Positions 4,678 through 46,289 of a stretch of DNA of 64,000 bases are shown here, in pieces. The stretch is from Erysipelotrichales bacterium (lineage in GTDB: Bacteria; Bacillota_I; Bacilli_A; RF39; UBA660). Under the pieces are notes generated by a model. The model worked only from the letters and a program-made list of their open reading frames with translations. It was not told the origin of the DNA and did no database searches. The stretch's first letter is position 1, and each line of letters opens with the position of its first letter. The translations under genes and the position numbers were made by a program. Where the stretch lies: contig JAFLUY010000005.1 of NCBI GenBank assembly GCA_022508565.1, forward strand, positions 62,001-126,000. Direction: 5' to 3'.

Positions 4678-4701
4678 ACTATCACCTAATAAAATAGTAT
4701 G

Positions 4702-28314: not shown

Positions 28315-30144
28315 TTACATTTTTCTTATCGAATCATGAACTATTGATATTTTTCTAATAACATTTTCCTCATCAAATATTAATGTTTCTTTTATTATAT
28401 TTATGTTAGAAATAATATTAAATAAAGAAGAACATGATGTTGTATCATTTTTATAAACATCCAAGTAGTCAATATAAAAAGAAATAGTATCATTAACAAT
28501 ATCATAAAGAAAGCCCACCATATTCTCAAGTTGAAAATCTTTAGGTCCGTGAAATTGTTTATTTCTCATTCTATAAGCATTATCTAACAATTCTTTTGAT
28601 TCATTAAGATATTCTTTAAAACAATTGTCATAATTATTAACTCTATGCAAAATTTTCTTATATTTCCAATCAATGTAATCACAATCATTGCTAGATAATT
28701 TTGAATAATTAAAAAATAAATTTTCAACATTGTTATTACTATATTTTTGATTCATTTTATAAATTTTACTTATTTGAGTCGCTGTCACGTAAATATAACC
28801 AGAAAACATTCTATCGGCTACCAAAAAACTAGCATAATCTTCCAAAGATTTGACTATTTTATTTGAAGCTTTTCTAAATAAAGTTTCTAAAGCAAACCAA
28901 GTATTTGTAAATCTTGTTAAAATTGAATCTGATGTTGTGTAATAAGGCAATAATTGAACTGCTTCATCAATAATTTCATTTATATCGTTCTGCGAATTAT
29001 CAATTATATGTCTTTTAAATACATCAGAATAGTCAATTGTAAATTGTGACAGCGGTTTAAAAATATCGTCATAATAATTGTAATCATTAATAAATGATTT
29101 TTGACCTTTTCGTTCAATAATTAGATATTTTCCTTGAGAATTAACTTTAATTCCGGAGTATAACATGGATCCAATAAAAGGTTGTAATGTGTTTTGTCGA
29201 AACTTTTTAATTGCATACCAAATATCTTTAGAATCAATAGTTGATGAAAGAAAATAATTATTATCGTTAGAACTCCTAATATATTTTTCTAAAATCTCAT
29301 TTAAAGTTGTTTTATTATTAATTTTATACTCGTTAATCTTTTTCTCAAGTCCAGATTTACTAAATATTGTATAATTAGCATTATTTGACTGTCTTAAGGA
29401 TGTTACTAATTTTTCATCAAAAGTTTTATCCATTTTAACAAATAAAATATACTGATTATACTTATTATACATTTCAGCAAAATTTTGAAATAATTCAAAA
29501 AATATATTCTCCTTTTTTATTTTAAAAAACTTTCTAAAGGTGTCTTTTATTACTCTTTTTATTTCAAAGACACTTATGCCAATATAATCCATAAGTAAAG
29601 AAAAATATTCATTACTTGTATCAACAATTTTATCACAGATGTTATCATCAAAAGGTTCAGACAATAAATTATATAGTTCATCTGAAACAAACTCAAAATA
29701 TTGATTATCGATTAAGCTGTTTCTTATAAATTTTACATTTTCTATAAAAATTTTATCTTCTGTGGTTTTTAATAACTTTGCATACTTATTCTTGTCTTTT
29801 TCTTTTAACAAAGTACTATTTTTTATACTATATCGTATGTAATCAATTTTTTGACTTGGAATTTTTTTCTCTTCACCTTCATATTGACGTATCATATTAT
29901 CATAATAATTAATAATATTTTGCAATTTCCCTAGTAATGATATGCCAAAATTACGACACCCTAACATTGAAACACTACTCAAACTGTCAATTATATGATT
30001 TAAAAAAAACATAAGACATCTATTTTGCATTTTATACTTTTTAAAATCTGAATTTTTTATTAATTTGTTATTTGCATATAGAAGATTTTTTAAAAAACTT
30101 TCTTCATTATCAAAAAGACTATAATCATAAACTTCGTAATCCAT
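28315..30144 (-). CDS. ApeA/HEPN-type protein with Rx4H motif, possible abortive-infection nuclease
   Basis: The 609-residue protein has no signal or membrane helix. The C-terminal ~200 residues look like an Apea-like HEPN domain: a leading NTWFALETLFRKASNK helix, a second helical pair, and RMRNKQFHG (about residues 524-532), which contains the Rx4H motif of HEPN ribonucleases. The N-terminal ~400 residues are helical and unrecognised and may be the sensor. HEPN-Apea proteins occur in phage defence, but this assignment is inference. It sits directly downstream of the disrupted amidase gene, outside the island, with its own AGGAGG site. Confidence 0.68.
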   Translation of the reverse strand: MDYEVYDYSLFDNEESFLKNLLYANNKLIKNSDFKKYKMQNRCLMFFLNHIIDSLSSVSMLGCRNFGISLLGKLQNIINYYDNMIRQYEGEEKKIPSQKIDYIRYSIKNSTLLKEKDKNKYAKLLKTTEDKIFIENVKFIRNSLIDNQYFEFVSDELYNLLSEPFDDNICDKIVDTSNEYFSLLMDYIGISVFEIKRVIKDTFRKFFKIKKENIFFELFQNFAEMYNKYNQYILFVKMDKTFDEKLVTSLRQSNNANYTIFSKSGLEKKINEYKINNKTTLNEILEKYIRSSNDNNYFLSSTIDSKDIWYAIKKFRQNTLQPFIGSMLYSGIKVNSQGKYLIIERKGQKSFINDYNYYDDIFKPLSQFTIDYSDVFKRHIIDNSQNDINEIIDEAVQLLPYYTTSDSILTRFTNTWFALETLFRKASNKIVKSLEDYASFLVADRMFSGYIYVTATQISKIYKMNQKYSNNNVENLFFNYSKLSSNDCDYIDWKYKKILHRVNNYDNCFKEYLNESKELLDNAYRMRNKQFHGPKDFQLENMVGFLYDIVNDTISFYIDYLDVYKNDTTSCSSLFNIISNINIIKETLIFDEENVIRKISIVHDSIRKM

Positions 30145-30183
30145 TTTTCCTCCTATTTATAGCAACATATTACATATATATGC

Positions 30184-30216
30184 AAAAAAAAGTAAGAGCC
30201 TCTCTCGCCCTCACTT
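30184..30216 (-). terminator. Intrinsic terminator at the amidase 3' end
   Basis: AAGTGAG...CTTACTT stem with inner GC pairs, followed by eight T on the minus strand. Confidence 0.8.
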
Positions 30217-30233
30217 AAAAAACAATTAACTAA

Positions 30234-31064
30234 CTATGGAATTAACAATTCTTGATTAATACTTAATAGATTACTTGTTAGATTATTTAATTTCATTAAA
30301 TTATCTACAGTAGTATTATATTTCTTAGCTATACCATATAATGTGTCTCCTGCTTTTACTACATAAACATTCATAGAAGGTACAGTTAGCTTTTGTCCTA
30401 TACTTAGTAGATTAGATGTTAAGTCATTTAATGCTTTTAAATTTTCAACAGTAGTATTGTGTTTCTTAGCAATGCTATAAAGTGTATCACCAGCTTTTAC
30501 TACATAGATATTACTAATTGATTCACTAATATCCGGTTTTTCTCCAGATACTTTAAGTTTTTGGCCGACAGATAAGAAACTATTAGATAAATTGTTTAAT
30601 TGCATTAACTTTTCAACACTTATATTAAATTTTTTACCTATACTGTATAAAGTATCTCCCGCTTTAACAGTATAATATTCTAAATCAGGTACTATACCTT
30701 TATAATTTAATACTGCTTCTACTACATCTTGAGCATATTGTTTGTAATTATTTTTAAGTTTATTAGCATCTTTAGTATTATCTAAAAAACCATATTCAAT
30801 TATTACTGCCTCATATGGAGTAGTATCTCGTAACATATAATAATAATCTTGATTTGGATTAGCTGTTCCTCTTTTTTGATAATACTTTCTTATCTTTTGT
30901 CCAGAGCCAGCAAGTTCATTTAAAATATTCTGACTTAACTTTTCATTATTACGAAGTGCATATATTACTTCGGCACCTTCGCCACCTGGCGATAGATGGT
31001 ATTGTAAAGATATTCTTCCATAAGACATCAACTGTGAGGATAAAAAAGTATATAGAAAATACAT
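30234..31064 (-). pseudogene. C-terminal half of a LysM amidase, split by the island
   Basis: The real amidase part is 30234-30987: GGEGAEVIYAL, then ...EAVIIEYGFLDN carrying the catalytic Glu, then three LysM repeats (each VKAGDTLYSI-type). The N-terminal half with the first zinc-binding motifs lies across the island at 40585-40857. The open frame continues 77 bases into the island and starts at ATG 31064 two bases after the helicase stop, adding a foreign start segment (MYFLYTFLSSQL...). This chimera lacks two zinc ligands. Joining the two halves at the AGG core gives a continuous 336-residue amidase. Confidence 0.9.
30975..31000. other. Left attachment junction of the serine-recombinase island
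   Basis: On the minus strand the junction reads CTATCGCCAGGTGGCGAAGG. The sequence left of position 30984 is amidase; the rest belongs to the island. CGCC-AGGT-GGCG is a short inverted repeat. The three-base core AGG (30985-30987) is shared with the right junction. Confidence 0.75.
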
Positions 31065-31065
31065 A

Positions 31066-33795
31066 TTATATATGAATTTTTTTCATTTTTTGATTTAGTA
31101 TCCCTAAATCTCTTTTGCTTTCCTTTTCATTAAAGCTCTCAAATATTTTTTCTTGACTATCAGAACCCCAATATATTTTCAAGTATTTTTTTGCTCTAGT
31201 AATTGCTGTGTAAAATATATTTTTTGTTATTCTATCCTCAATATTTTGTGTTATTACTATTTTTACACTATCATATTCAAGTCCTTGTGCCTTGTGAATT
31301 GATATAGCATATGATAAATTAAATGGAATAATATGATCATACTCGTTTTCATCATCATCTTCATCTCGAAATTCATTTACTTTAAATTTTATTATGATTT
31401 TATCTTCTTTATCACTGCCAATCAACTCTATGTCACTAGGTATAAAAGGCGTATTTATTACATTTCTATCTATCTCTATTGAGAACCAAATGCAATTTTC
31501 ACCTTCTTCAATATTCTTTATTATACCTTTTAAATTATTATGAAGAAATCCATTAAATCTTGGGCAATTATTAAATAAAACAGGATCTTCTATTTTAAAA
31601 ACATCGACTCCAAAATTATATTCTTTGTTTGAATTTGTACTTTGCATAACTCTATTAATATTATTAATACCATACATTCCGTCATAGTTTAAGCACAATA
31701 TTATTTCTTCTTCTGTTGTTTTGGTAAATACATCTTTAGACAATATTTCAGAATATTCTTTATTGCTCATAATAGAAATAGCACGTTTATCATTCTTCCT
31801 AACACAATTCCAAAAATCCAACAAGTCTTTATCTGATGTTCTATGTGTCATTTCTAATTCATAGGATATTCCTTTCTTAAAATATCTACTGCATATTTGA
31901 AACCAATTTCCATATCTAATTGACTCTATTTGATATATGTCACCAACCATAACAATTGCTTTATATTTGAACTTATCTAGCACTTTTAACATATCTATAT
32001 TGCTTACCATACTACTTTCATCTATTATTAATAAATCACATCCATCATTATAATTATCTATAAAATTTTTAACTGTCATTATTATTAGCTTTTCATCTTC
32101 TTGCAATCTAGAACTTAGGTTAGTAACAGCAGTATTTGTATTTGCTATAAAGCACTTATTATAATTTTCAAATGCATTAGATAATAGTTCTATCATTTTT
32201 GTCTTACCTGTACCTGCCGGACCATATATAAATGCAATTGAGCCTTTTTTAAAAATATCTTTTAATATTTTTTCTTTATCTTCTGATACAGAATTGTTAT
32301 ATATTAGATTTAGATAGAAATCAACGATGTCTCTTAGTGATGGATCAATGTTGAGAGAATACTCTTCTAATTTTTTTATAATATTGATAGAATTCTTTTC
32401 ATATTCATTAATGTAAAGAAAATTATTCTCTATGACTAATATACTATCACTATTTTTTAGTTTTGATTTTATTTTATTATTATATGTTTCGACAAGTTGC
32501 GGGATATTATTAAAAAATCCTATTTCATCAATTGGAGTATATAATTGGTAATTACTCTCTGTATTATTCTTGATATAAGAATATAACAGTTCATCATCTT
32601 TTCCTTCTACCTCAATTGCTTTAATTAAATCATAAAAACTAGGATTATGATTATGTAAAGACATTGCATATGGCATAGAATCAAACAATCCACTTTTTTT
32701 ATGTAAGTACAAATTACTTAAATATGGATGCTGATAATCAGATAATTGATTTCTAATTACTGTATTTACCATTTTAGTAGTTAAATATCTAATTATATTA
32801 CATCCACTTTTGTTTTGCTTAACCACTTCTCTCATTTTATTTAACATTAAACTAATATAATGATTTTCAGCGCCTTCTTGAACAAATTCTATTGTATCTT
32901 TAAAGTCATCATCTGATGAACATAAAATTTCGTTTATTGTACATTCATTATTTGTTAAATAATCCATTAAATTTCTATATTCTCTATATTTTTCTCCAAA
33001 ATTATTTGTGTTTCCAAAAATCTTAAATAGATTTTTTAACTCACATATTCTTATTGCAATTTTATATGAAACCAACACTTTAATCTTTACTTTTCCAACA
33101 TTTAATTCTACTGTATCATCAACAGACGTGATATTTACTGAATAATTATCTGGAATATATTCTTTTGAATAAAATGTTAAACGCTCAAATTTATTATTAA
33201 AGTCCGTGGCTTTAGAAAGTGTTAGCTCATAATATATATTTCCTTTAGAATAAATTGTAGTACATTTTTCAACATAGAATTTTCCTTTTATTAGTTTCTT
33301 TTTATCTCGATTTATACTTTCAATTTTTTTACAAATTATATCATAATTTTCTTTCATTGATTTGTCATCATATATTGGAAATAAATCTATATTATTAATT
33401 ATGTCTATATCAAATTCATCTTTTAATAATTTTTTAATTAGACAGATATATCTAAAATAATGCTTAACTAATCTTTCAGCACTATCTTCATTAGGAGTAT
33501 AATGTGATGCAGTACCTTTTAAATACTCATAAAAATCATACAAAAACTTATACTGATTTTTTCCTTTTATTGCATCAAAAGATTCATGAATATTATCATA
33601 GTGTGTATCAAGAGTTAAATTGTTTATTTTATTATTTAAAAGAATTGCAACATCTTCAACTAAGTTTCTTAACTGAGACAAAATATTTTCAGACAAAAAA
33701 CCTTTATCTTTAAGACAGGAATCATAATAATAAATGTTCTTTTCAATAACTTTTGATATATAAGATATTTCTTTTTCAGGTGATATTCTTGACAT
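31066..33795 (-). CDS. SF1 (RecD2/UvrD-like) DNA helicase with large unknown N-terminal region
   Basis: The 909-residue protein has a ~500-residue N-terminal part I do not recognise, followed by an SF1 helicase core: motif I GPAGTGKTK (~residue 525), motif II LLIIDESSMVS, motif III GDIYQIES, then an OB/SH3-like insert, motif V YAISIHKAQGLEYD and motif VI FYTAITRAKKYL. That is the RecD2/AAA_30-UvrD_C_2 type. Its position downstream of a methyltransferase and a nuclease suggests it is the motor of a restriction-like system. A terminator-like hairpin lies 24 bases before the start codon. RBS AAAGGA. Confidence 0.85.
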   Translation of the reverse strand: MSRISPEKEISYISKVIEKNIYYYDSCLKDKGFLSENILSQLRNLVEDVAILLNNKINNLTLDTHYDNIHESFDAIKGKNQYKFLYDFYEYLKGTASHYTPNEDSAERLVKHYFRYICLIKKLLKDEFDIDIINNIDLFPIYDDKSMKENYDIICKKIESINRDKKKLIKGKFYVEKCTTIYSKGNIYYELTLSKATDFNNKFERLTFYSKEYIPDNYSVNITSVDDTVELNVGKVKIKVLVSYKIAIRICELKNLFKIFGNTNNFGEKYREYRNLMDYLTNNECTINEILCSSDDDFKDTIEFVQEGAENHYISLMLNKMREVVKQNKSGCNIIRYLTTKMVNTVIRNQLSDYQHPYLSNLYLHKKSGLFDSMPYAMSLHNHNPSFYDLIKAIEVEGKDDELLYSYIKNNTESNYQLYTPIDEIGFFNNIPQLVETYNNKIKSKLKNSDSILVIENNFLYINEYEKNSINIIKKLEEYSLNIDPSLRDIVDFYLNLIYNNSVSEDKEKILKDIFKKGSIAFIYGPAGTGKTKMIELLSNAFENYNKCFIANTNTAVTNLSSRLQEDEKLIIMTVKNFIDNYNDGCDLLIIDESSMVSNIDMLKVLDKFKYKAIVMVGDIYQIESIRYGNWFQICSRYFKKGISYELEMTHRTSDKDLLDFWNCVRKNDKRAISIMSNKEYSEILSKDVFTKTTEEEIILCLNYDGMYGINNINRVMQSTNSNKEYNFGVDVFKIEDPVLFNNCPRFNGFLHNNLKGIIKNIEEGENCIWFSIEIDRNVINTPFIPSDIELIGSDKEDKIIIKFKVNEFRDEDDDENEYDHIIPFNLSYAISIHKAQGLEYDSVKIVITQNIEDRITKNIFYTAITRAKKYLKIYWGSDSQEKIFESFNEKESKRDLGILNQKMKKIHI

Positions 33796-33818
33796 AATTT
33801 TTCTTTCCTTTATCTACT

Positions 33819-33859
33819 AAAAAAACTAATACAGAAGCTTATAACTAAGCTTGTACTAG
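33819..33859 (-). terminator. Terminator-like hairpin between nuclease and helicase genes
   Basis: On the minus strand CTAGTACAAGCTTA pairs with TAAGCTTCTGTATTAG (14 pairs, 2-nt bulge, GTTA loop), followed by seven T. The T-run ends 24 bases before the helicase ATG, leaving no room for a promoter after it, so the helicase needs read-through or antitermination. Confidence 0.7.
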
Positions 33860-33892
33860 CACCATTTTTTATTAAAAATAATATATCATATC

Positions 33893-35083
33893 TTATTCTA
33901 TATTATCTGCAAAATATGTTTTTAATTCATTTTTATTAGCATTTATCTTTATATGCATGGAAATTGATGGTTTTAATTGTTCAACATTATTTATATCAAA
34001 TATAACTTTTTCATTTTCTATTTCAGCATTTTTAATATCTATAAAGAATACCTTATTAAATTTAATTCTACTTGGGATACTTGTTCCTCTTCCATTAACA
34101 ATTTCTACTAACTCATTATTCAATTCAACTTCATATTTATTGGAACCAACTTTAATAGCATTCATATTTTTTAATACTTTTTCAAATAAATCCATAGTAA
34201 ATATTTTTCTATGATTTCTTCCTGATGTTCTTATTTCACTATTCTCAGTTGTAATAATTCTTCTTCCATCTGGTAATTCTATTTTTACACATTCAGGTGT
34301 TAAAACAATTAACTCATTATCTATAGTAGAAGATATAATTACATCTATATCATGTCTAGCAAAATATTCCATTATAGACATAACTTTAGTTTCATCATCA
34401 AAATTATTGTAATTATGTCCTATTTGTTCAATAACATTTGTTTCGTTATTAAACTTTTCAATTAACGGAATATATTCAGGTGTATTCTTTCTAAAATCAT
34501 CAGATATTAATAATTTTCCCTCATCGTTATATAAACCAGTAATATCATATTCTCCAGCCTTAGCATTTCTTTCTTTAAATTCTATCCTAACTTTATTACC
34601 ATTAATTATGATTTCAGCATCACCATTTGCAGGGTTTCCATATTGAAAAATAAATATATCAGGATTTTTTGTACTATAATAAAGATATCTAGCAGCAGAA
34701 AAAGTTTGATATCCAGAATTTAAATAATTTCTACATTCAATTGGGACTTTATTCATTGGAGTTCTATCAAAATCAAGACATTTATTTAATTTAAATATTT
34801 TTGCTAATGTCTCTATATAATTACATTCAGAAAGTATACCTGGTTGTAAAGCTTTGCTTTGATTATATTGTTTTTCTATTTCATATTTTCCACTTTTTAG
34901 TTTTGATATTTCATTTAATTCTTCTTTATATTCATTACAAAAATCATCAAATTCTTTATTAAAATCATCAACTGTTTTAAAAAAATCATTTAATTTTTTT
35001 ATATCTATTTCAGAAAGTATTAAATCAGAATTTGTATTATAAATTGTTTTTATTAATTCATCAACTGCTTCTTTTTTATTCAT
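33893..35083 (-). CDS. Putative restriction endonuclease (PD-(D/E)XK-like)
   Basis: The 396-residue protein has an N-terminal helical/coiled part and a central region FQYGNPANGDAEIIINGNKVRIEFKERNAKAG. The spacing GDAE-x10-EFK fits the D...ExK metal site of PD-(D/E)XK nucleases (~residues 154-170). No family name can be assigned. It overlaps the methyltransferase gene by eight bases (ATGAATAA), the normal arrangement of a modification-restriction pair. Start ATG 35083 is preferred over a TTG at 35107. The C-terminal part is beta-rich, perhaps DNA recognition. Confidence 0.62.
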   Translation of the reverse strand: MNKKEAVDELIKTIYNTNSDLILSEIDIKKLNDFFKTVDDFNKEFDDFCNEYKEELNEISKLKSGKYEIEKQYNQSKALQPGILSECNYIETLAKIFKLNKCLDFDRTPMNKVPIECRNYLNSGYQTFSAARYLYYSTKNPDIFIFQYGNPANGDAEIIINGNKVRIEFKERNAKAGEYDITGLYNDEGKLLISDDFRKNTPEYIPLIEKFNNETNVIEQIGHNYNNFDDETKVMSIMEYFARHDIDVIISSTIDNELIVLTPECVKIELPDGRRIITTENSEIRTSGRNHRKIFTMDLFEKVLKNMNAIKVGSNKYEVELNNELVEIVNGRGTSIPSRIKFNKVFFIDIKNAEIENEKVIFDINNVEQLKPSISMHIKINANKNELKTYFADNIE

Positions 35084-36611
35084 AATCTTCACTCTCACTT
35101 TCTTCAAATAATGAACTACTATGTATCTTATTTAAAATAGATATATCTTCATGTATATTTAATATTTCGAAAAATAACTTATTAATCTCATCTCTATACT
35201 TTTTAGGAAACTTAATATTTTCTTGTTTTTTCCCAGCATTAACTTTATATACTAAATAATCTTTTTCTTTGCTTTGCATTTCTTCTGCTATTTTATTTAA
35301 TTTTTTTAATTGATTTTCATTCATTATATCAAAAAACACAGGAATAGTATTAATTATAGTTAGCGGACAATTTATACCACCATCATATAATCTCCAATAC
35401 CAATATGCAAAAGTAGAATTCATCATGCAATAAACATAATTGTATTTATTTTTATCTTTAATTCTAACCACTCTTTTACCATCTCTAGACAAGTTTTTCT
35501 TTGATCCAACAGTAAAATATCTACAAGTTGTGGGCAAATATAATTCAGCGCCATCATTAGCACTTAATAATTTACTCATTTTTTTATTTGATTTTTGTTC
35601 CCAAATATCTAGGATATCTAGCAAATCACTATGGCATTTATAAAACGCCTTTCTTCTTGCATCAACTAATTGATATCTATCATTGACCATACCATATAAA
35701 AATTCATTATTAAGCATTTTTATTCTTTCTTCATTTTTAAATCTTATTAGAGGACTAAATCTAAAACCTTTTTTATTTTCTTTATTTTCTACAACTGTAA
35801 TAGCAGCCCTAACGGAATTACCCTTATTAGAATTAAAAATGCCATGTTTTCTACCATTAAATATATTTCCTGGAACATTATCAAATGACACAACATATCC
35901 ATTGTATTTATTCATAATTTTTCTTAATGAATAAAACTTTCCACTACCAATAAAACTATATGGAGTAATAATTACGGAAGCACTACTTTGATTAATTATC
36001 TTCTCTATAAAAGCAGAATACAATTCTTTAGAATCAGATATAACTTTTGTCAACTTCCAATCGAAACCTGCTTCAATTATTTTATAATATGGAGGATTAG
36101 ATATTACCTTAGAGTTTTTAGGTAATTTTACATTTTTACTTAAGAAATCACACTTTTTAGCATGAATTTTTTTTAAATATTCTTTTCCATACTTAATAGC
36201 AATAGAATATTTACATATTTCTAATGCTATTTCATCAAGATCAAATAAATATATTTTTCCATTATTAATTAGGTTAATTGCTTCTCCCTTTCCAACAGTA
36301 TCCAAATAAGATAATATGAGATTACCTGCTCCACAACCTACATCACATACATTTTCACCTTTAAGAGATTTTAACCAATTTGACATTACATTTGCTACAT
36401 CTCGAGGTGTATAATATTTTCCCATTTCTTTCTTACTTATTTTATTTACATGTTCTAAACCAATTTCATACAATTCACCATAATTATCAACATTAAAAAT
36501 CTCAGATATAAATTTATTATTTAAAGTTTTAGATAGTATTGAATGCCATGTTTTTTTTAGACCATATTTATCAATATCAATTATATAATCATCAATTGTA
36601 TACTTCTTCAT
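35076..36611 (-). CDS. N6-adenine DNA methyltransferase (type II-like)
   Basis: The 511-residue protein carries the SAM-binding motif I VCDVGCGAGNLI (~residue 85) and the catalytic motif IV SNPPYYKI of N6-adenine methyltransferases, in the gamma-class order (FxGxG before NPPY). The C-terminal ~250 residues (NSTFAYWYWRLYDGG and following) look like a target-recognition domain. GKYYTPRDVANVM at ~residue 63 is the usual segment before motif I of these enzymes. It is upstream of and overlaps the nuclease gene. The start is ATG 36611 (a TTG at 36617 is closer to the GGAAGG site). Confidence 0.88.
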   Translation of the reverse strand: MKKYTIDDYIIDIDKYGLKKTWHSILSKTLNNKFISEIFNVDNYGELYEIGLEHVNKISKKEMGKYYTPRDVANVMSNWLKSLKGENVCDVGCGAGNLILSYLDTVGKGEAINLINNGKIYLFDLDEIALEICKYSIAIKYGKEYLKKIHAKKCDFLSKNVKLPKNSKVISNPPYYKIIEAGFDWKLTKVISDSKELYSAFIEKIINQSSASVIITPYSFIGSGKFYSLRKIMNKYNGYVVSFDNVPGNIFNGRKHGIFNSNKGNSVRAAITVVENKENKKGFRFSPLIRFKNEERIKMLNNEFLYGMVNDRYQLVDARRKAFYKCHSDLLDILDIWEQKSNKKMSKLLSANDGAELYLPTTCRYFTVGSKKNLSRDGKRVVRIKDKNKYNYVYCMMNSTFAYWYWRLYDGGINCPLTIINTIPVFFDIMNENQLKKLNKIAEEMQSKEKDYLVYKVNAGKKQENIKFPKKYRDEINKLFFEILNIHEDISILNKIHSSSLFEESESEDYE

Positions 36612-36635
36612 ATCCAAAACTACCTTCCTATAACA

Positions 36636-36644
36636 ATTATAACA
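36636..36644 (-). promoter_or_regulatory. Extended -10 promoter for methyltransferase operon (TGTTATAAT)
   Basis: TGTTATAAT on the minus strand, 25 bases upstream of the methyltransferase start. Confidence 0.6.
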
Positions 36645-36685
36645 TATTTTCTAATTTTACCCTATTAATTTATCTAATATTGTCA

Positions 36686-36721
36686 AAAAAGATACTCAAA
36701 AAGATACACAAAAAGACACAT
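36686..36721. repeat. Three tandem 12-bp direct repeats between divergent promoters
   Basis: AAAAAGATACTC, AAAAAGATACAC and AAAAAGACACAT follow each other without gap. They lie between the methyltransferase promoter (36636) and the rightward promoter (36731). Repeated sites at this position suggest a regulator (control protein) or iterons bound by the nearby HTH protein. Confidence 0.75.
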
Positions 36722-36730
36722 AAAAGCATA

Positions 36731-36758
36731 TTGACTTAGTAATTCAATATGTTAGAAT
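36731..36758 (+). promoter_or_regulatory. Rightward island promoter
   Basis: TTGACT (36731-36736), a 16-bp spacer and TAGAAT (36753-36758), ten bases downstream of the direct repeats. Confidence 0.65.
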
Positions 36759-37100
36759 ATGTTTAAATAGAAATAATTGGCGAAGGAGATAGCAATATTT
36801 TCTTTTTTCGCGTGACCCACTATAAGGAGATGATATAAATGAATATAATGTAGTTGTCCCATTATTAATCACATTATAAACACTTATAAAATAGGAGTTT
36901 AATAATATTTTCATCCCACTCTGGTGGGATAATTTTGCAAGTGCAAAATAAGTTTGATATCACGCTAAAGTCTTATGCATTAAGGCTTTTTTTAATGTGA
37001 TGATATCAACTTCTTATGCTCTTCAATTATTTTTATTAATAATTTATATAAATATGGGTTAATATAGCCCATTTTATCCCACTACGAAAGGAGAAAGTTG
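36759..37100 (+). promoter_or_regulatory. Structured leader with mini-ORF and attenuator-like hairpins
   Basis: The 340-base leader contains AAGGAG then ATG 36839 encoding Met-Asn-Ile-Met-stop. Two stable hairpins follow (ATCCCAC-TCTG-GTGGGAT at 36913-36930 and ATTTTGCA-AG-TGCAAAAT at 36932-36949). Then comes an outer stem TTGATATCA/TGATATCAA (36954-37009) enclosing AAGTCTTA-TGCA-TTAAGGCTT and a T-run (36968-36993), which is terminator-shaped. AATCACATT at about 36870 can pair with AATGTGAT in the last stem. This fits attenuation control of the rightward genes; unproven. Confidence 0.55.
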
Positions 37101-37373
37101 ATGAATAATAGTTACGGAAAATTTTACTTTGATTTATTAAAAAACAAAATGAATAAAAGTGCTTATATTCTCTTTACCATATTAATATCTAACTCACAGC
37201 AAAAAGGATTTGCTTATGGCTCAAATAAATATTATGCCAACATTTTAAATTGTTCTACTAGAACCATTTCTAATTTACTAAAGATATTAGTAGATAAAAA
37301 ATATATAAGAATTGAAAAACCAAAAAGCTTTAAAAGAAAAATATATATTGAAGAAAATATTCTAACTAAGTAG
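37101..37373 (+). CDS. Small HTH protein (winged helix, HTH_36-like)
   Basis: 90 residues containing a helix-turn-helix: SAYILFTILISNSQQKGFAYG, YYANILNCSTRTISNLLKIL (recognition helix SCTRTISNLL type), then wing KKYIRIEKPKSFKRK. This resembles the N-terminal HTH of replication initiators/HTH_36 proteins and could be the regulator that binds the direct repeats at 36686. The ATG at 37101 follows AAAGGAG by seven bases. Confidence 0.72.
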   Translation: MNNSYGKFYFDLLKNKMNKSAYILFTILISNSQQKGFAYGSNKYYANILNCSTRTISNLLKILVDKKYIRIEKPKSFKRKIYIEENILTK

Positions 37374-37481
37374 AAAAGTAATTCTATGAACATAGAAATA
37401 TATTTCTAACATAATAAATAAATTTAATAAAAGAAAGAATAAATAATATTAAGGCCTTAATAAGACCTAGGGAGGTTAAAA

Positions 37482-37922
37482 ATGAATAATTTTGATTTTA
37501 TAAGTTATCATGGTACTATAACTAGCATTAGAGATAACGTTGATGACAAATATATTTGGTTTGATATTGTTAAATATGAAATATATACAGACAAAGATGG
37601 TACTGTTAAAACAAATCCATCTTTTTTTAGTGCCAGGATTTATAAACACACCAAATATAAATTAAAGGTAAATAATGAAGTTTATGTTAAAGGAATTCCT
37701 AAAGGTTATATAGATAAAAAAGGATATAGACAAAACTATATTCATGTGAATAAAATTGATGGAATAATGATAAACGAAGATAACTTTGAAAAAATAATTA
37801 GCTATGACACCGATGGTGTCCAATTATGGCACGGAAAAAGATGTGAAGATTTTGATTTACCTCAAAATGAATATGATGAACTAAAAAATATGCTTGACAA
37901 AATTACAGGTGATAAAAAATGA
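37482..37922 (+). CDS. Putative OB-fold (SSB-like) protein of the island
   Basis: 146 residues, beta-rich: SYHGTITSIRDN, IWFDIVKYEIY, FFSARIYKHT, NEVYVKGIPKGYIDKKGYRQN, YIHVNKIDGI. A strand order ending in VKG-x-PKG-YIDKKGY-x-YIHVNKI resembles the ssDNA-binding OB fold. It lacks the acidic SSB tail, so it is a candidate only. Preceded by GGGAGG. It overlaps the next small ORF by four bases. Confidence 0.55.
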   Translation: MNNFDFISYHGTITSIRDNVDDKYIWFDIVKYEIYTDKDGTVKTNPSFFSARIYKHTKYKLKVNNEVYVKGIPKGYIDKKGYRQNYIHVNKIDGIMINEDNFEKIISYDTDGVQLWHGKRCEDFDLPQNEYDELKNMLDKITGDKK

Positions 37923-38032
37923 ATAACCTATTAAAGGAAAACATAAATTTAAATATGAGCAAGGACAAACAGGAAATATTTAAAGAATTAATAATCAAAT
38001 ATTTAATTAAGCAAATTGTTGAAGAAAATTAA
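37919..38032 (+). CDS. 37-residue ORF upstream of recombinase
   Basis: MNNLLKENINLNM..., helical and charged, starting inside the OB-fold-like gene (ATGA overlap) and ending in TAA 38030-38032. Small coupled ORFs before serine recombinases are common in integrative elements, and this may assist recombination or be regulatory. It is too short for family assignment. Confidence 0.5.
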   Translation: MNNLLKENINLNMSKDKQEIFKELIIKYLIKQIVEEN

Positions 38033-38042
38033 TATCGCACAT

Positions 38043-38071
38043 TTGCTTATTTTTTTTGAATCTAATATAAT
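38043..38071 (+). promoter_or_regulatory. Promoter for serine recombinase
   Basis: TTGCTT (38043-38048), a 17-bp spacer and TATAAT (38066-38071), upstream of AAGGAGG and ATG 38116. Confidence 0.65.
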
Positions 38072-38115
38072 GCTCTTGTCTTATGGAAGATAAGTAGCAA
38101 AAAAGGAGGAATAAA

Positions 38116-39768
38116 ATGAACTATAGTTACTTATCTAACTTAGATTATAATGCTGGTATTTATATCAGACTTTCACAAGAAGATAAAGATAAGAAATATG
38201 AATCAGATAGTGAAAGTGTTTCTAACCAAAAAGATATACTAAAGAATTACTGTAAAAATAATGGATTTAATTTAGTTGGAGAATATGTTGATGATGGATA
38301 CTCTGGAACTAATTTTGATAGACCTGGATTTGTTCAAATGATTGAAGATATCAAAGCAAAAAAAATAAATCTAGTAATCGTTAAAGATTTATCTAGACTT
38401 GGTCGAGATCATGTCATGACTGGTTATTATATTGAAACATATTTTCCTGAAAATAAAGTTAGATTTATATCCATTGTAGAAAATTATGATAGCATGAAAA
38501 ATCAAGCTAGTAATGATTCATCTACTTTCATAATTGCATGTAATGATTATTATAGTAAACAAAACTCCTTAAAAGTTAGAAATGTATTAGATTCAAAAAG
38601 AAAAGCTGGTAAATTTATAGGTAGTAAACCATGTTATGGTTATATGAGAGATCCAGATGATAAAGGACATTTAATACCAGATCCTAAAGTATGTGAATAT
38701 GTTAAGAAAATATTTGATTGGAGAAGTAATGAAATAGGTGTTAGTGAAATAGCTACAAGACTTACCAAAATGGGAGCTCCTACTCCAGCAGGATATAAAA
38801 ATTTACCTATATCATCTAGGTTAAAAGAAAAAGATGAATGGTCTATTCATGCTGTTAATAAGATACTTAAAAATAGAATGTATACTGGTGATATGGTTCA
38901 ACATACACAAACTAATGTAAGTTATAAATCAAAAAAGAAAATTACTCTAGATGAAAATATGTGGATAATAGTTGAGAATACCCATGAACCTCTAGTTGAT
39001 AAAGAAACATTTATGTTAATAAATAGAAAGAAGAAAAACAAAAATAGAACATATCAGAAAAGAACTAGACCAGAAAGATTACTTGAAGGATTATTATTCT
39101 GCAAAGAATGTGGTAATAGACTTGGAGTTCTTTATAGAAAGAAGCAAGACTACTGGTGTATTAATTGTAATAAATATACTAGAGATCCAGTTAGAAGAAT
39201 GTGTGTATCTCATTTTTTTGCTTATGATTATTTTGAAGAATTAGTTCTTAAACAAATAAAAAAATGTTTAGACGATTTATTTAAAGATTTAGATTATAAA
39301 GAACTAAATGATGAAATAATTAAAAGGACTAAAAGTAATTCAAATGATTATGTTAAAAGAAAAGAAAATATAGAGAAAGAACAAAACAAAATATACGAAT
39401 CTATACATACGCTATATCAAGATAGATTAGATGAAAATATCACACCAGATCAATATAAACTTCTATCTAAACCTTTTGAAGATAAATTAAAAGATTTAAA
39501 AATACAATTAGAAGATATAAATATAGAAATTATAAAAAGAAAACATAATGCTGATAAAATACCAAAATATATAACTAAAATAAAAAAGTTGCTTAATTTA
39601 AGTAATCCTAACAGAGATTTATTATTTTCTTTAATTGAAAGAATTGAAGCAGATAAAGATAGAAATATTACTATTACTTTTAAGTATGACATTTTAGATA
39701 CTCATACATTTAAATATGTTGATAATAGAGTTCGCAATCCATACGGAAGAAATGGAAAAAACTCTTGA
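38116..39768 (+). CDS. Large serine recombinase (site-specific integrase)
   Basis: The 550-residue protein catalyses integration and excision through a serine-DNA link. The resolvase domain has GIYIRLSQED (catalytic Ser ~19), NLVIVKDLSRLGRD (Arg pair) and DDGYSGTNFDRPGF. The recombinase domain (GKFIGSKPCYGY...) and a zinc ribbon (LLFCKECGNRLG, CINCNKYTRDPVRRMC) follow. A coiled coil of ~100 residues (DLKIQLEDINIEIIKRK) ends it, the usual large serine recombinase layout. It lies at the right end of the island it presumably mobilises. Strong AAGGAGG site. Confidence 0.95.
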   Translation: MNYSYLSNLDYNAGIYIRLSQEDKDKKYESDSESVSNQKDILKNYCKNNGFNLVGEYVDDGYSGTNFDRPGFVQMIEDIKAKKINLVIVKDLSRLGRDHVMTGYYIETYFPENKVRFISIVENYDSMKNQASNDSSTFIIACNDYYSKQNSLKVRNVLDSKRKAGKFIGSKPCYGYMRDPDDKGHLIPDPKVCEYVKKIFDWRSNEIGVSEIATRLTKMGAPTPAGYKNLPISSRLKEKDEWSIHAVNKILKNRMYTGDMVQHTQTNVSYKSKKKITLDENMWIIVENTHEPLVDKETFMLINRKKKNKNRTYQKRTRPERLLEGLLFCKECGNRLGVLYRKKQDYWCINCNKYTRDPVRRMCVSHFFAYDYFEELVLKQIKKCLDDLFKDLDYKELNDEIIKRTKSNSNDYVKRKENIEKEQNKIYESIHTLYQDRLDENITPDQYKLLSKPFEDKLKDLKIQLEDINIEIIKRKHNADKIPKYITKIKKLLNLSNPNRDLLFSLIERIEADKDRNITITFKYDILDTHTFKYVDNRVRNPYGRNGKNS

Positions 39769-39775
39769 CTTAATG

Positions 39776-39784
39776 TGATATAAT
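39776..39784 (+). promoter_or_regulatory. Extended -10 promoter for 39810 gene (TGATATAAT)
   Basis: TGATATAAT, 25 bases before AAGGAA and ATG 39810. A nearby TTGACT is too close (8 bp) to be its -35. Confidence 0.5.
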
Positions 39785-39809
39785 ATTAAGTTAAGAAAGA
39801 AGGAATAGT

Positions 39810-40565
39810 ATGAAGACATTTGAACTAATATTAAATATTATTATCGCACTTGGAGGTTTAGGAGCATTCATAACATACTTTTGGCAGAAAAAAGCCAGAA
39901 CTAGAGATGCAGCTGCTCTTGTTGTAACTCAAATTGAAGAATTAAAAGACAAAATATTAGAAATAAATGACATTGCTGTAGATGGAAAACTAAATGAAAC
40001 TGAATTTTATGAAACACTAGATATAATAACTGATAATCAATGGGAAAAATATAGACACGTTTTCATAAAGAAAATTGATTCATATAGTTATAGAACAATA
40101 AATAAATTCTATGATTGTGCCTTAGGCATTAGAGAACAACTGCTTTTTGTTAAACAACTTCAACATAATCAATATTTCAATATACAAGGCATGTTAGATA
40201 CTAATTGTAATAAATTTATTCTAGATGGGATGTCTTATGTTGAACCTAATTTATCTGATTTAAAAAAATACATAGATCAAATCGAAACTAAAAATGATGA
40301 AGATAAAAAGATTAAAGATATTGTTAATAGCATGCTTTTAGAATCATTAAAAATAAATATAACTCAAGATATGAAACATTTTTTCGAAATATATAATTCT
40401 CAAAAATCAAAGATAGTTGAAATTACTAATTCTAATGTTTATATCAACTATATTCCTACCCAAGTATATTTAACAATATCTAAATTAATAAACAACATAA
40501 ACTCTATTGAAGTAATAGGATGTACAGGATATAAAAAATTAAAAAAAATAGCTAGAATAAAATAA
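39810..40565 (+). CDS. Membrane-anchored protein at the island end, unknown
   Basis: 251 residues: one N-terminal helix (ELILNIIIALGGLGAFITYFW), then a basic KKARTRDA and a mostly helical soluble part, with no catalytic motif. It lies between the recombinase and the right attachment junction with its own extended -10 promoter. It may be accessory cargo such as an immunity or membrane effector. Not recognised. Confidence 0.65.
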   Translation: MKTFELILNIIIALGGLGAFITYFWQKKARTRDAAALVVTQIEELKDKILEINDIAVDGKLNETEFYETLDIITDNQWEKYRHVFIKKIDSYSYRTINKFYDCALGIREQLLFVKQLQHNQYFNIQGMLDTNCNKFILDGMSYVEPNLSDLKKYIDQIETKNDEDKKIKDIVNSMLLESLKINITQDMKHFFEIYNSQKSKIVEITNSNVYINYIPTQVYLTISKLINNINSIEVIGCTGYKKLKKIARIK

Positions 40566-40584
40566 TATTTAATTCCTTATAATA

Positions 40585-40857
40585 CTAGCTGTCGGACCCT
40601 CCCGCATTTATGTGATTAGATAGAACTACTACATCATCGCCACTACTTATATATTTTTTTACTCTATTAATTCTTTCTGTTGGAGATAATGTTTCATCTG
40701 TATCTCTAGTCATATATACAGGTATACCTAATTTTTTAAATTCATCATACATAGTTTTACTTATATCTAAAGTCATATTTTTTTCTATTATATTATTACC
40801 ACTAGCTCCAGGATCAGTTCCTCCATGACCTGGATCTATAATTACTTTTAAAGACAT
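40585..40857 (-). pseudogene. N-terminal half of the LysM amidase, split by the island
   Basis: Codons 1-86 are intact amidase: VIIDPGHGGTDPGA (first zinc His), NNIIEKNMTLDIS (Glu ligand), PVYMTRDTDETLS and VVLSNHINAGG (second zinc His). After Gly87 the frame runs three codons into the island and stops (SDS, TAG). The catalytic Glu and LysM repeats are at 30234-30987. There is no signal peptide (MSLKVIIDPGHGG). A good GAGGTGA ribosome site precedes ATG 40857, so a truncated, probably inactive product could be made. Confidence 0.9.
40586..40615. other. Right attachment junction of the serine-recombinase island
   Basis: On the minus strand the junction reads AATGCGGGAGGGTCCGACAG. AATGCGGG and beyond is amidase; from GTCCGAC on is island. 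Joining AATGCGGGAGG to TGGCGAAGG restores the amidase (attB); joining ATCGCCAGG to GTCCGACAG gives the predicted attP. Confidence 0.75.
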
Positions 40858-40938
40858 AAAATCACCTCTAAAATATTATATGAAAAAAATAATTAGTGGT
40901 TAATTATTAATATGTCATAATTAATATATATTTATAAA

Positions 40939-40972
40939 TAAAAAAACAAAAATCAATTAATTTGATTTTTGT
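40939..40972 (-). terminator. Intrinsic terminator after MFS gene
   Basis: AACAAAAATCAA-ATTAA-TTGATTTTTGTTTTTTT on the minus strand. Confidence 0.8.
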
Positions 40973-41001
40973 TCCAATTAACTATTTACGTATTTTATTG
41001 A

Positions 41002-42177
41002 TTATTCTTGAACTTTACTTAATCTAGCAACAATAATACCTTCTAATAATAATGAAACAGCAGGTATTATCATAAGATAATTAATATATTCCTTACCCAA
41101 GAATAAACACATTAATAATAACATTGAATAACCGAAGCATCTTGAAATAGTAAATAATACTTCTCTAGTAAAATAATATTCTGGTTTAAAGTTTTCTTTT
41201 AATTCTTTACAATTTGATAAATTAACTATTACATTATCAGAAATTAGATTAATAGTTAAAATAAATGAAAATCTAACTATCAAATAAGTTATAAGTACCC
41301 ATACTTTTGGATAAAAGGCAAATAGAATTAACGTAAAGAATGATATAACACTAGAAATATGTAAAAGTGAACTATATCTTTCTTTTTTTACTTTAATTGT
41401 ATATAAAGTACAAATTATTAAAGATAAAAAGGCACATAAACTATCTACAAAACCTAAGTTAAGATTAGTTTTAAAAATATTAATCTTAGATAGAGTTATT
41501 ATTGTTCCCATAACCCCTGAAGAATAAGTAAATCCAGCCAAAAAAGGAACAGCTAAAGAATGTCTAACTTTTTTATTCTTCTTTATTAAATTCATAAAAT
41601 TTTTAAATTGAAAACTCTTAACACAATATTTTTCATCTTTTAAAAAGAATGAAACAATAAACATAATTACAAATAGAGAAAAGAAAACTTTACCTAAATT
41701 AATATAACTAATAAATGTTAGAGCTACTCCCATGCACAATGGTATAATAATATTCATTATTTTATTAATAATATTTATTATTCCATTAAAAGTTTTTCTA
41801 TCTTCATTAGTGACTTTTTCTGTATTCAATATATTTTTAGGAAAATGGTAAAAGCCATCTGCCATACCTTTTATAAATCCAATCAAAAAAATATGATTTA
41901 TAATATCTTCTTTTAATAACATAATTAAAGAAATATAAAGTGCTTGTAGTGAAATCCCCATCCTAAAATAAGGAACTTTTACATTTCTTTTCATAAAATT
42001 TCTAATAATGAAGAATCCTATAGAAATAAAGAAATAAAAAGTTAAATAATATTTTGCTAATGGTAACACTTCATAATTTGCTACCTTAAAAAAATACATT
42101 ACAAAAAAAGTATCAAAATAAACATTTATAATATTCTTTAATATGTCAATAGTAAAAACTGCTTTTTTTTCATTCAT
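41002..42177 (-). CDS. MFS-type transporter, unknown substrate
   Basis: 391 residues with about 12 helices in two halves and a charged central loop (KKDEKYCVKS and KKNKKVRHSL). The fold pattern is that of the major facilitator superfamily. The A-motif GxxxDRxGRR is not conserved, and the nearest resemblance is to divergent gut-Firmicutes MFS proteins. It is monocistronic, with a terminator, just outside the right island junction and unrelated to it. Confidence 0.72.
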   Translation of the reverse strand: MNEKKAVFTIDILKNIINVYFDTFFVMYFFKVANYEVLPLAKYYLTFYFFISIGFFIIRNFMKRNVKVPYFRMGISLQALYISLIMLLKEDIINHIFLIGFIKGMADGFYHFPKNILNTEKVTNEDRKTFNGIINIINKIMNIIIPLCMGVALTFISYINLGKVFFSLFVIMFIVSFFLKDEKYCVKSFQFKNFMNLIKKNKKVRHSLAVPFLAGFTYSSGVMGTIITLSKINIFKTNLNLGFVDSLCAFLSLIICTLYTIKVKKERYSSLLHISSVISFFTLILFAFYPKVWVLITYLIVRFSFILTINLISDNVIVNLSNCKELKENFKPEYYFTREVLFTISRCFGYSMLLLMCLFLGKEYINYLMIIPAVSLLLEGIIVARLSKVQE

Positions 42178-42844: not shown

Positions 42845-44554
42845 TCATTTATTTTGTAAAGTTTGATAATATTTATTGTTCTTAATTAATTCTTCATGAG
42901 TACCCTTACCTACTAATCTTCCATGATCAATTACAATTATTTGATCAGCTATTTTCATTAATGCAGGTTTATGTGTAATCATTAATATTGTATGATCTTG
43001 TTTAAGTTTTTTAAGTATCTTCATAATTTGTTTTGATGTGTTCATATCAAGAGTTGATGTGACTTCATCAAATAACAATACTTCCGAATTTGATAGCAAT
43101 GTTCTAGCTAAAGCAATTAATTGCTTTTGACCACTAGAGATATTTTCTGCATCTCTTACTAACTTAGTGTTATAGCCATCTTTTAAACTCATTATGTAAT
43201 CGTGTATTCCAACTTTTTTACATGCTTCAATATGATGCTCATGATTTGTATCAACTAAATTAAAATTCTCTTTTATACTCATATCAAATATAAAAGGCTT
43301 TTGAGTAACTATGGATACATTAGTTGAATAGACTTCTTTAGTATAATCATAAATACTTTCTTCATCTAATAGAATTGAACCTTTGTTAGCTTTATAAAGT
43401 CTTAATAATAATCTAAATATAGTTGATTTACCTGATCCACTTTTACCAACTATAGCAGTAAAACTATTTGGTTCAAGTTTAAAACTAACATCTTTTAATA
43501 CTTCATTTTTTTCATAAGTGAAAGAAACATTTTTAAACTCAATTTTCCCACTTATAAAATCATTGTCGTTTTCTCCAAACTTTAACATATTTTTATTCTT
43601 ATAATTTAATACATTATGGATTCTATCTAATCTTGTAGAATTACTAGACATATTATTCATTGAAGAATAGAATTTTAAATATTTAGACTCAATATTTTCA
43701 TAATATCCAATTACAAGTATTAAAGTTGCTACTTCAAATCGTCCATCTAATATTAGATATAATAGAATAAAATAAACAACTAATTTACCTGCTCCTAATA
43801 TTGATGGAACTAATACATCAATGCTATTATCATAAGTTCTTTTCTTAAAATAACTCTTCTTACGTTTTTCTTGGTATTGAGTTAATATCTTATTCAAATC
43901 TTCTTTCATATTAAATGATTTAATTTCTTTATTACCATCTAATATTTGTCCCATTAAACCAGATATATTATCCTGTTCTAATCTAGATTTAGAAAGATAA
44001 AAATCTCTTTTTTTCATATTTCTTCCTAATGCATAAATAGAAATAATAGTTAATACAGCAGCAATTAAACCGACATAAATATTAACTGATGATAAAACAC
44101 CTATTGCAATAACCATTGCAATTAATTCAGTTAACGCATCAAATAATTGATCTGGTATTTGCATAACCTTCCCAACATCATTAAATGCTGTATTAATAAT
44201 ATAAGATGTCGAAATATTCTTTGAGAAATTTTCATCATATGATGTTACTTTATTTAAGATAAGCTCTTGTAATTTGTTATGAGTATAGACAGAATTATTA
44301 GCATATGAAACAAAGTTATAATGATGACATAATACATAAAGTGCACTAGAAGATAAGAATAACAAAGTAGATACAAGTGTTAATCTTAAATCATATGCTG
44401 TAACATATTCAATAATCTTTGATGCCATTAATGGTATAAGTAATATTGATATACTTCTTAGTAAAGCTGATAAAAATAAATGAAATAATAATTTTTTATT
44501 ATTAGCACCTAAACTAAAATATTTTTTAACTAATAAATAATATCTTTTAATCAT
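42845..44554 (-). CDS. Heterodimeric ABC exporter subunit (ATPase-competent half)
   Basis: 569 residues: six helices (to ~330) and an ABC ATPase with Walker A GKSGSGKS, Walker B EVLLFDEVTSTLD and H-loop MITHKP. The signature is ISSGQKQL instead of LSGGQ. It pairs with the partner at 44547-46289 (8-base overlap ATGATTAA), whose Walker B and H-loop are degenerate. Together they make one normal and one degenerate ATP site, as in TM287/288 and BmrCD-type drug or lipid exporters. Start ATG 44554, not the longer reading from 44614. Confidence 0.9.
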   Translation of the reverse strand: MIKRYYLLVKKYFSLGANNKKLLFHLFLSALLRSISILLIPLMASKIIEYVTAYDLRLTLVSTLLFLSSSALYVLCHHYNFVSYANNSVYTHNKLQELILNKVTSYDENFSKNISTSYIINTAFNDVGKVMQIPDQLFDALTELIAMVIAIGVLSSVNIYVGLIAAVLTIISIYALGRNMKKRDFYLSKSRLEQDNISGLMGQILDGNKEIKSFNMKEDLNKILTQYQEKRKKSYFKKRTYDNSIDVLVPSILGAGKLVVYFILLYLILDGRFEVATLILVIGYYENIESKYLKFYSSMNNMSSNSTRLDRIHNVLNYKNKNMLKFGENDNDFISGKIEFKNVSFTYEKNEVLKDVSFKLEPNSFTAIVGKSGSGKSTIFRLLLRLYKANKGSILLDEESIYDYTKEVYSTNVSIVTQKPFIFDMSIKENFNLVDTNHEHHIEACKKVGIHDYIMSLKDGYNTKLVRDAENISSGQKQLIALARTLLSNSEVLLFDEVTSTLDMNTSKQIMKILKKLKQDHTILMITHKPALMKIADQIIVIDHGRLVGKGTHEELIKNNKYYQTLQNK

Positions 44555-46289
44555 TATCAAACACCCCAATTCTACTTGGTGATTTTCTTGATTGTAACGT
44601 TTGATATATTTCATTACGTTTAATTAAATCTTTATGTGTACCAACATCATTAATACGGCCATTATCTAATACTACAATTCTATCAGCAACTTTCATAAGT
44701 TCTGGCTTTTTAGTAATCATAATTATTGTATGGTCTTCTTTTAAGTTCTTTATTAATTTTGGAACAAATAAAGCAGTATCAGGATCCAAAGATGTTGTTA
44801 TGTCATCTAGAAGTAATACTTCAGCGTTAGAAAGTAAAGTTCTAGCAATTGAGATCATTTGTTTTTGACCTCCAGAGATATTACTTCCATTCTCTCTTAA
44901 AACTGTATTATATCCATTTGGTAAAGTCTCAATAAAATCATGAATGCCAACTCTTTTACATGCATCTATTTGATGTTCAATATTAGTATCAACAAAATTT
45001 AGATTCTTACGAATACTCATATTAAAGATAAATGGTTTTTGATTAGCAACAGCTACTATATCAGAATAAACATCTTTTGAAAATGATAATATATTTGTAT
45101 TATCAAGTTTTATTGTTCCTTTTGTAGGTTCATAAAGTCTTAAAAGTAAATTAATCATCATTGTTTTTCCTGAACCTGCTTCACCAACAATAGCTAAAAC
45201 TTCATTATGATTGATTTTCAAATTAATATTGTGAAGTATTTCTTTTTTCTTAACACTTAAAGAAACATTTTTAAATTCAAGCATGCTGTAGTAATCTAAA
45301 GCATCTAAAACTCCAAATTGAATTTCCTCAGAGTTATAGTTTAATATATCATTAATTCTTGTAACAGCTATATTAGTTTCTCTAATCGAGCATGTTGAAC
45401 TTACTAAATCATTAATATAATCTACTAAATATTCATGATATGAAATAACTAATACCAAAACACTTACATCTATTTTGTGTGTAAATACTAAATAGATTAA
45501 GAATAAATAAAGAATAAATCTAAAAATATAGATAACTATTTTTACATCATTATCTCTAGTATTATAGTATCTTCTTTTTGTTAAATAATTCTTAGTAAAA
45601 TTCTTTTGAATTACATGCATTTTACTCTTTAATTTTTCTACCATATTAAATGTTTTTATTTCTTGTAAACCAGATATTATTTGAGTAAGAAGTGTGCTAT
45701 ATCTATCATCATCATTTTTTGATTTGTCATAGTAATAATTAATTTTTCTATCTGCTACATTTCTTACCATAATATATGCAAAAGTAAAAATAACAAATAT
45801 AAGTGATAAATAAATATTAACTGTTCCAATAATTACAAGTACAGCTGCTACTTGAAGAAGGCCCATAAAAAACTCGGATAATTGGTCATTCATATCACCT
45901 ATCTCAACAATATCAGAGTTTATTGAATTCATAAGTTTTCCCTTACTAATAAAACGTGTAAAATTACTATCTACGTCTATTAACTTATTTAATACTTTAG
46001 TTGTCATTTTATTGTAACAATAATCCATATTAAAACCATATATTAAATAATTAATATATAATGATATAGCATATAAAAGATACACTACAAAAAGCGCTAT
46101 TAAACATATATATGTCATTTTAGCATCTTGTAAAGTTAAATATTTAACTATTAGAGATCCTACAATTGGTAATAAAAGTGAAAAACCTTTATAAAAAAAT
46201 GCAGATAAAATATTTATTACTAAATACTTGATTTTAAGTTCTGCTAATATTAAATAATCTCTAATAAATGAATAATACTCCTTTATCAT
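44547..46289 (-). CDS. Heterodimeric ABC exporter subunit (degenerate half)
   Basis: 580 residues: six helices and an ABC ATPase with Walker A GEAGSGKT and signature ISGGQKQM. The catalytic Glu after Walker B is Asp (LLLDDITTSLD) and the H-loop His is Lys (MITKKP). This is the non-catalytic partner of the 42845-44554 subunit; its canonical signature completes the partner's active site. It is translated first, ending inside the partner gene. The substrate is unknown. Confidence 0.9.
   Translation of the reverse strand: MIKEYYSFIRDYLILAELKIKYLVINILSAFFYKGFSLLLPIVGSLIVKYLTLQDAKMTYICLIALFVVYLLYAISLYINYLIYGFNMDYCYNKMTTKVLNKLIDVDSNFTRFISKGKLMNSINSDIVEIGDMNDQLSEFFMGLLQVAAVLVIIGTVNIYLSLIFVIFTFAYIMVRNVADRKINYYYDKSKNDDDRYSTLLTQIISGLQEIKTFNMVEKLKSKMHVIQKNFTKNYLTKRRYYNTRDNDVKIVIYIFRFILYLFLIYLVFTHKIDVSVLVLVISYHEYLVDYINDLVSSTCSIRETNIAVTRINDILNYNSEEIQFGVLDALDYYSMLEFKNVSLSVKKKEILHNINLKINHNEVLAIVGEAGSGKTMMINLLLRLYEPTKGTIKLDNTNILSFSKDVYSDIVAVANQKPFIFNMSIRKNLNFVDTNIEHQIDACKRVGIHDFIETLPNGYNTVLRENGSNISGGQKQMISIARTLLSNAEVLLLDDITTSLDPDTALFVPKLIKNLKEDHTIIMITKKPELMKVADRIVVLDNGRINDVGTHKDLIKRNEIYQTLQSRKSPSRIGVFDND

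What the first reader, a model, noticed from the sequence alone, without database searches (positions are those of the whole stretch)
31066..36611. Candidate defence cassette: adenine methyltransferase, PD-(D/E)XK-like nuclease and SF1 helicase
Three genes in one direction, the first two overlapping by eight bases: an N6-adenine methyltransferase with a probable target-recognition domain, a nuclease with a GDAE-x10-EFK site, and a 909-residue helicase whose first ~500 residues are unrecognised. Simple type II systems need no helicase; types I and III and BREX/DISARM do, but their other subunits are missing. This could be a minimal translocating restriction system not matching a named type.
Basis: partly seen in the sequence, partly recalled or inferred. 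Interest (0 to 1): 0.78.

Follow-up and report, generated by a model that had tools for sequence, protein, structure and literature searches.

The report
R-M pair plus separate helicase cargo
A small mobile element carries an ordinary two-gene restriction-modification system followed by a separate helicase gene of a known but untested candidate defence family; relatives show that the pair and the helicase travel independently, so the three genes are not one new kind of restriction enzyme.

Summary
The three genes are real: methyltransferase 35076-36611, nuclease 33893-35083 (8-base overlap) and helicase 31066-33795, all on the minus strand. They are two modules. The methyltransferase+nuclease pair recurs in three other genomes (70-72% / 34-71% identity) without the helicase, so it is most simply a self-sufficient two-gene type II R-M system; its PD-(D/E)XK-like nuclease belongs to no family searched. 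The helicase matches PADLOC candidate family PDC-S53 end to end (E 3e-289). It has a RecD/Pif1-type 5'-3' motor behind a ~500-residue region predicted as helical - SSB-like OB fold - helical, with no nuclease fold found. Its relatives never carry this R-M pair but sit beside unrelated type I, II and III R-M genes, Gabija-like genes or nothing: 21 of 49 non-redundant loci have a methyltransferase-motif gene within 6 kb, against 2 of 20 control windows. Among the closest relatives (at least 49% identity) all eight with readable flanks have restriction or methylation genes nearby. All three genes are cargo of a ~9.6-kb serine-recombinase element splitting an amidase gene. The 'minimal translocating restriction system' is not supported; a defence cargo is. 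Open: does the helicase act alone or help its neighbouring R-M system?

The parts
35076..36611 (-). N6-adenine DNA methyltransferase, 511 aa from ATG (513 from TTG at 36617); motifs DVGCGAG and NPPY; C-terminal part presumably the target-recognition region (inferred)
   Evidence: PADLOC MTase_II 1.6e-44; N6_Mtase 3e-18
33893..35083 (-). PD-(D/E)XK-like nuclease, 397 aa from ATG; overlaps the MTase stop by 8 nt; probable cognate restriction endonuclease
   Evidence: conserved D163-A-(E/D)-x10-E176-F-K178 in homologues; no hit in Pfam, PADLOC, NCBIfam or PDB
31066..33795 (-). PDC-S53 helicase, 909 aa: residues 1-160 helical, 166-246 OB fold, 250-500 helical, 505-876 SF1B RecD/Pif1-like motor
38116..39768 (+). 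Large serine recombinase (Resolvase + Recombinase + zinc ribbon; nearest NCBIfam models CcrB/XisF), probable integrase of the element
30987..40590 (.). Whole integrated element, about 9.6 kb (ends approximate to a few bases), inserted in an amidase gene
   Evidence: amidase homologous to L008 is split at codon ~107; joining the flanks gives one open frame of 341-343 codons
40591..40905 (-). 5' part of the split N-acetylmuramoyl-L-alanine amidase gene (residues 4-108 of the intact homologue)
30237..30986 (-). 3' part of the split amidase gene with LysM repeats (residues 106-355 of the intact homologue)
37098..37373 (+). Small HTH_36 protein, 91 aa, cargo or regulator of the element
39810..40565 (+). 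251-aa membrane-anchored-looking protein of unknown family inside the element

Best explanation
Two independent defence modules are carried as cargo on one serine-recombinase element. Module 1 is a self-sufficient two-gene type II R-M system: the MTase methylates adenine in the target site, and the overlapping PD-(D/E)XK-like nuclease cuts unmethylated sites without needing the helicase. Module 2 is a PDC-S53 helicase: a 5'-3' SF1B DNA motor whose N-terminal region, built around an SSB-like OB fold, is inferred to load it on single-stranded DNA. I think it most likely acts on phage DNA by itself or together with host nucleases, for example unwinding ends or replication intermediates, and is selected to sit beside restriction systems because cut ends are good entry points. 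Shown: gene content, module independence, fold of the motor, element boundaries. Inferred: R-M activity, substrate, polarity and antiphage effect of the helicase.
For: The MTase+nuclease pair is found in L126 (72/71%), L127 (70/34%) and L128 (72/34%) with no helicase beside it; those three genomes hold only an ordinary ~730-740 aa RecD2-like helicase, E about 1e-6 to 1e-8. The helicase is PDC-S53 over 7-905 of 909. No relative of the nuclease or MTase turned up beside helicase relatives. Helicase neighbours belong to unrelated systems: 2x C5 MTase + HNH (L005), HSDR_N (L008), N6_N4 MTases (L009), N6_N4 MTase + ResIII (L010), EcoRI-type methylase + GmrSD/HNH (L012), C5 MTase (L013), D12 MTase + HNH + Mrr (L014), McrBC and a PLD-ResIII gene further off (L004); type I M/S/R-like operons in L062, L063, L067, L073; Gabija-like genes in L064, L074; C5 MTase in the later-fetched L159. 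MTase-motif ORFs lie within 6 kb at 21/49 non-redundant loci versus 2/20 control windows (Fisher p 0.007). Motor matches RecBCD-RecD, RecD2, Pif1 (E to 1.5e-17); OB fold by repeated SSB matches. Split amidase and recombinase.
Against: No activity was measured. The nuclease call rests on one conserved motif and gene order; no family or solved structure matched and it was not folded. The SSB-like matches have weak E-values (0.05-1) although high probability. Many PDC-S53 loci (28 of 49) have no MTase-motif gene within 6 kb of the sequence held, and some sit on plasmids with no defence gene beside them, so a plasmid or phage housekeeping role is not excluded. The control windows came from a subset of host genomes and were longer (15 kb) than the flanks tested.
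Confidence: 0.8

Rival explanations
1. The helicase is a type-agnostic R-M helper: it does not take part in recognition or cutting, but loads on the ends made by whichever restriction enzyme lies next to it and unwinds or hands the DNA to nucleases, stopping repair of cut phage DNA.
For: Among helicases at least 49% identical to this one, all eight loci with readable flanks carry restriction or methylation genes of different types nearby; in L005, L008, L010, L012, L013 and L014 and in the window they are co-directional and the helicase lies downstream. In the prophage clade a unit of ~280-aa gene + helicase + ~70-aa HTH gene recurs, often with an R-M system close by, e.g. AlwI-like, LlaJI-like, SacI-like enzymes with MTases.
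Against: Not universal across the family; defence genes cluster in general; in L009 the MTases are on the opposite strand and in L004 the restriction genes are not adjacent.
Confidence: 0.4
2. The three proteins form one ATP-dependent restriction machine in which the helicase translocates before cleavage, as first proposed.
For: Same strand, close spacing; precedent of three-gene ATP-dependent systems CglI/NgoAVII (PMC4267653).
Against: Pair occurs without helicase in three genomes and helicase without the pair everywhere else seen; homology between the window and L126 stops at the end of the nuclease gene.
Confidence: 0.04
3. The helicase is a replication or mobility function of mobile elements rather than a defence gene.
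For: Occurs on plasmids, e.g. next to a replication protein in L. plantarum, and in prophages.
Against: Frequent adjacency to restriction and Gabija-like genes; flagged as a defence candidate by PADLOC; sporadic presence in about 3% of genomes sampled.
Confidence: 0.15

Closest known systems
PADLOC candidate PDC-S53
   Same: Helicase matches the model end to end (E 3e-289, residues 7-905)
   Different: No difference detected; the family is catalogued as a one-gene candidate and I found no paper describing it
Two-gene type II R-M systems with an N6-adenine MTase and PD-(D/E)XK endonuclease
   Same: Overlapping MTase and nuclease genes conserved as a pair in four genomes
   Different: Nuclease belongs to no family in Pfam, PADLOC, NCBIfam or PDB
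CglI / NgoAVII ATP-dependent R-M systems
   Same: MTase, nuclease and helicase genes in a row (PMC4267653)
   Different: Those use a C5 MTase, PLD nuclease with B3 domain and an SF2 DEAD-Z1 ATPase; here N6 MTase, PD-(D/E)XK-like nuclease and an SF1B motor, and the helicase is dispensable to the pair by gene content
RecD2 / RecD / Pif1 / Dda SF1B helicases
   Same: Motor domain fold and motifs
   Different: Large N-terminal region with OB fold not found in PDB; scores far below the RecD and RecD2 equivalog cut-offs
Gabija (GajA/GajB)
   Same: Defence genes found beside some PDC-S53 helicases
   Different: This helicase matches GajB models only weakly (E 5e-6) and no GajA is present in the window locus

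Membership tests
PDC-S53 (PADLOC-DB 2.0) | Full-length match to the PDLC05035 model | tested here: met
   E 3.2e-289, 960 bits, residues 7-905, model 5-895 of 900
PDC-S53 (PADLOC-DB 2.0) | Antiphage activity | not testable with these tools
   No experimental report found
Type II R-M system | DNA methyltransferase with SAM and catalytic motifs | tested here: met
   DVGCGAG, NPPY, N6_Mtase
Type II R-M system | Cognate endonuclease gene kept with the MTase | tested here: met
   pair conserved in L126, L127, L128
Type II R-M system | Endonuclease of a recognised family or with a conserved active site | tested here: inconclusive
   conserved DA(E/D)...ExK; no family or structure match
Type II R-M system | Cleavage without ATP-driven translocation | not testable with these tools
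   Inferred from absence of the helicase beside the pair elsewhere
CglI/NgoAVII-type system | PLD-family nuclease and DEAD-Z1 SF2 helicase | tested here: not met
   SF1 RecD-like motor, no PLD domain in the nuclease
BREX / DISARM / types I and III R-M | Their further subunits near these genes | tested here: not met
   none of the proteins scanned beside the three genes (28315-31064, 38116-42177) matches such a subunit
RecD2 | Score above the NCBIfam equivalog cut-off | tested here: not met
   TIGR01448 105 bits against cut-off 500

The most novel reading that the evidence does not exclude
PDC-S53 helicases, at least in the clade of this one, are a general R-M booster: a helicase that is kept next to restriction systems of every type while the restriction system itself is swapped, and that acts on restricted DNA ends whatever enzyme cut them.
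Probability: 0.35. Interest if true: 0.72.

Novelty: new member of a known kind. Interest (0 to 1): 0.4.

Why it matters
It corrects a tempting reading (a new three-part restriction machine) and replaces it with a testable one: a portable helicase from a candidate defence family that recurs beside restriction systems of every type. If the helper role is true, it would explain how restriction, which only makes breaks, is turned into irreversible destruction of phage DNA in hosts that carry it.

Tried and rejected
Obligate triplet: rejected by two-way independence. Helicase as RecD2 housekeeping copy: rejected, the genome has a separate weak match elsewhere (G000:C1) and equivalog cut-offs are not met. 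Nuclease domain hidden in the helicase N-terminus: no support in Foldseek against PDB or BFVD. Naming the nuclease family by profile from four homologues: no match; plasmid, phage and viral-contig searches for it were empty. Direct repeats at the element ends: none beyond short matches; only a GG-rich core is shared.

Full report
Observation. The MTase is an N6-adenine type by Pfam and PADLOC.

The pair. A search of 370 genomes of the same order with the nuclease gave three other genomes. In all three the nuclease lies directly behind a 70-72% identical MTase. None has the helicase: the only matches in those genomes are ~730-740-residue RecD2-like proteins at E about 1e-6 to 1e-8. DNA similarity between the window and L126 runs through MTase and nuclease and stops at the end of the nuclease gene. 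The pair is therefore a unit that needs no helicase, as a simple type II system should. The nuclease keeps D163, A164, E176 and K178 down to 33% identity but matches no known family. In L127 and L128 the MTase is 70-72% identical but the nuclease only 33-34%.

The helicase. It matches PADLOC family PDC-S53 over its whole length. PDC names are phage defence candidates added in PADLOC-DB 2.0 from a 'guilt-by-embedding' screen (PMC10855318, PMC12988326; the source preprint, Payne et al. 2024, is cited in PMC12255303, and was not itself held). No paper in the library names PDC-S53. AlphaFold gives pLDDT 84 for the whole protein and 88 for residues 1-518. The motor matches RecBCD-RecD, RecD2 and Pif1. 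In the N-terminal part the repeated matches are SSB-type OB folds, with weak E-values, lying presumably on the beta segment 166-246.

Its neighbours. Homologues were gathered from genome contigs, viral contigs, plasmids, phages and related genomes, giving 49 non-redundant loci with flanks. None holds this MTase or nuclease next door. Upstream and downstream neighbours include type I subunits, ResIII proteins, several MTase classes, GmrSD, Gabija-like proteins, Schlafen-type proteins, and restriction enzymes of the AlwI, SacI and LlaJI families. 21 of 49 loci (the window included) have an MTase-motif ORF within 6 kb; 2 of 20 windows of 15 kb from related genomes do, one of them likely the protein methyltransferase PrmC (Fisher p 0.007). 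In the nearest clade (at least 49% identity) all eight relatives with readable flanks have restriction or methylation genes, of different types; L004 and L009 are the loosest cases. L159, fetched after the tally, has a C5 MTase directly downstream. The family is sporadic, about 3% of genomes sampled.

The element. A cell-wall amidase gene that is intact in the related genome G101 (L008) is split in the window: residues 4-108 at 40905-40591 and 106-355 at 30986-30237. Between them lie a large serine recombinase, small genes and the three-gene cassette. Joining the flanks in a script gives one open frame of 341-343 codons. This explains why the helicase stop nearly abuts a truncated amidase.

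Interpretation. Two defence modules on one mobile element. What remains open is whether the helicase works alone or with R-M systems; the data fit both, and they need a bench test.

Noticed in passing
30237-40905: About 9.6-kb serine-recombinase element splits a LysM amidase gene; the two halves lie on either side and excision would restore the frame.
   Followed up: yes
3646-4716: A second amidase, 43% identical to the split one over its length, lies elsewhere in the window and may cover for it.
   Followed up: no
L127:3750-6459 and L128:356-3050: MTase is 70-72% identical to the window's, nuclease only 33-34%; a small ORF of unknown family (203 aa in L127, shorter in L128) follows where the helicase sits in the window.
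   Followed up: partly
L029, L030, L085-L091, L093, L094: Prophage-type loci share a unit of ~280-315-aa gene of unknown family, PDC-S53 helicase and ~70-aa HTH gene, with R-M or Vsr-type genes of different kinds near several of them: possible defence hotspot in Firmicute prophages.
   Followed up: partly
L048 (G790), L049 (G730), L045-L046 (G399), L050 and L052 (G750): PDC-S53 relatives in small genomes, several with in-frame TGA: L048 and L049 look intact if TGA is read as an amino acid, the others are broken into pieces.
   Followed up: no
39810-40565: 251-aa protein with an N-terminal membrane-like segment and no family, inside the element next to the recombinase.
   Followed up: no
42845-46289: Two overlapping ORFs of 589 and 580 aa just outside the element; the first is an ABC exporter by Pfam, the second was not scanned.
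   Followed up: no
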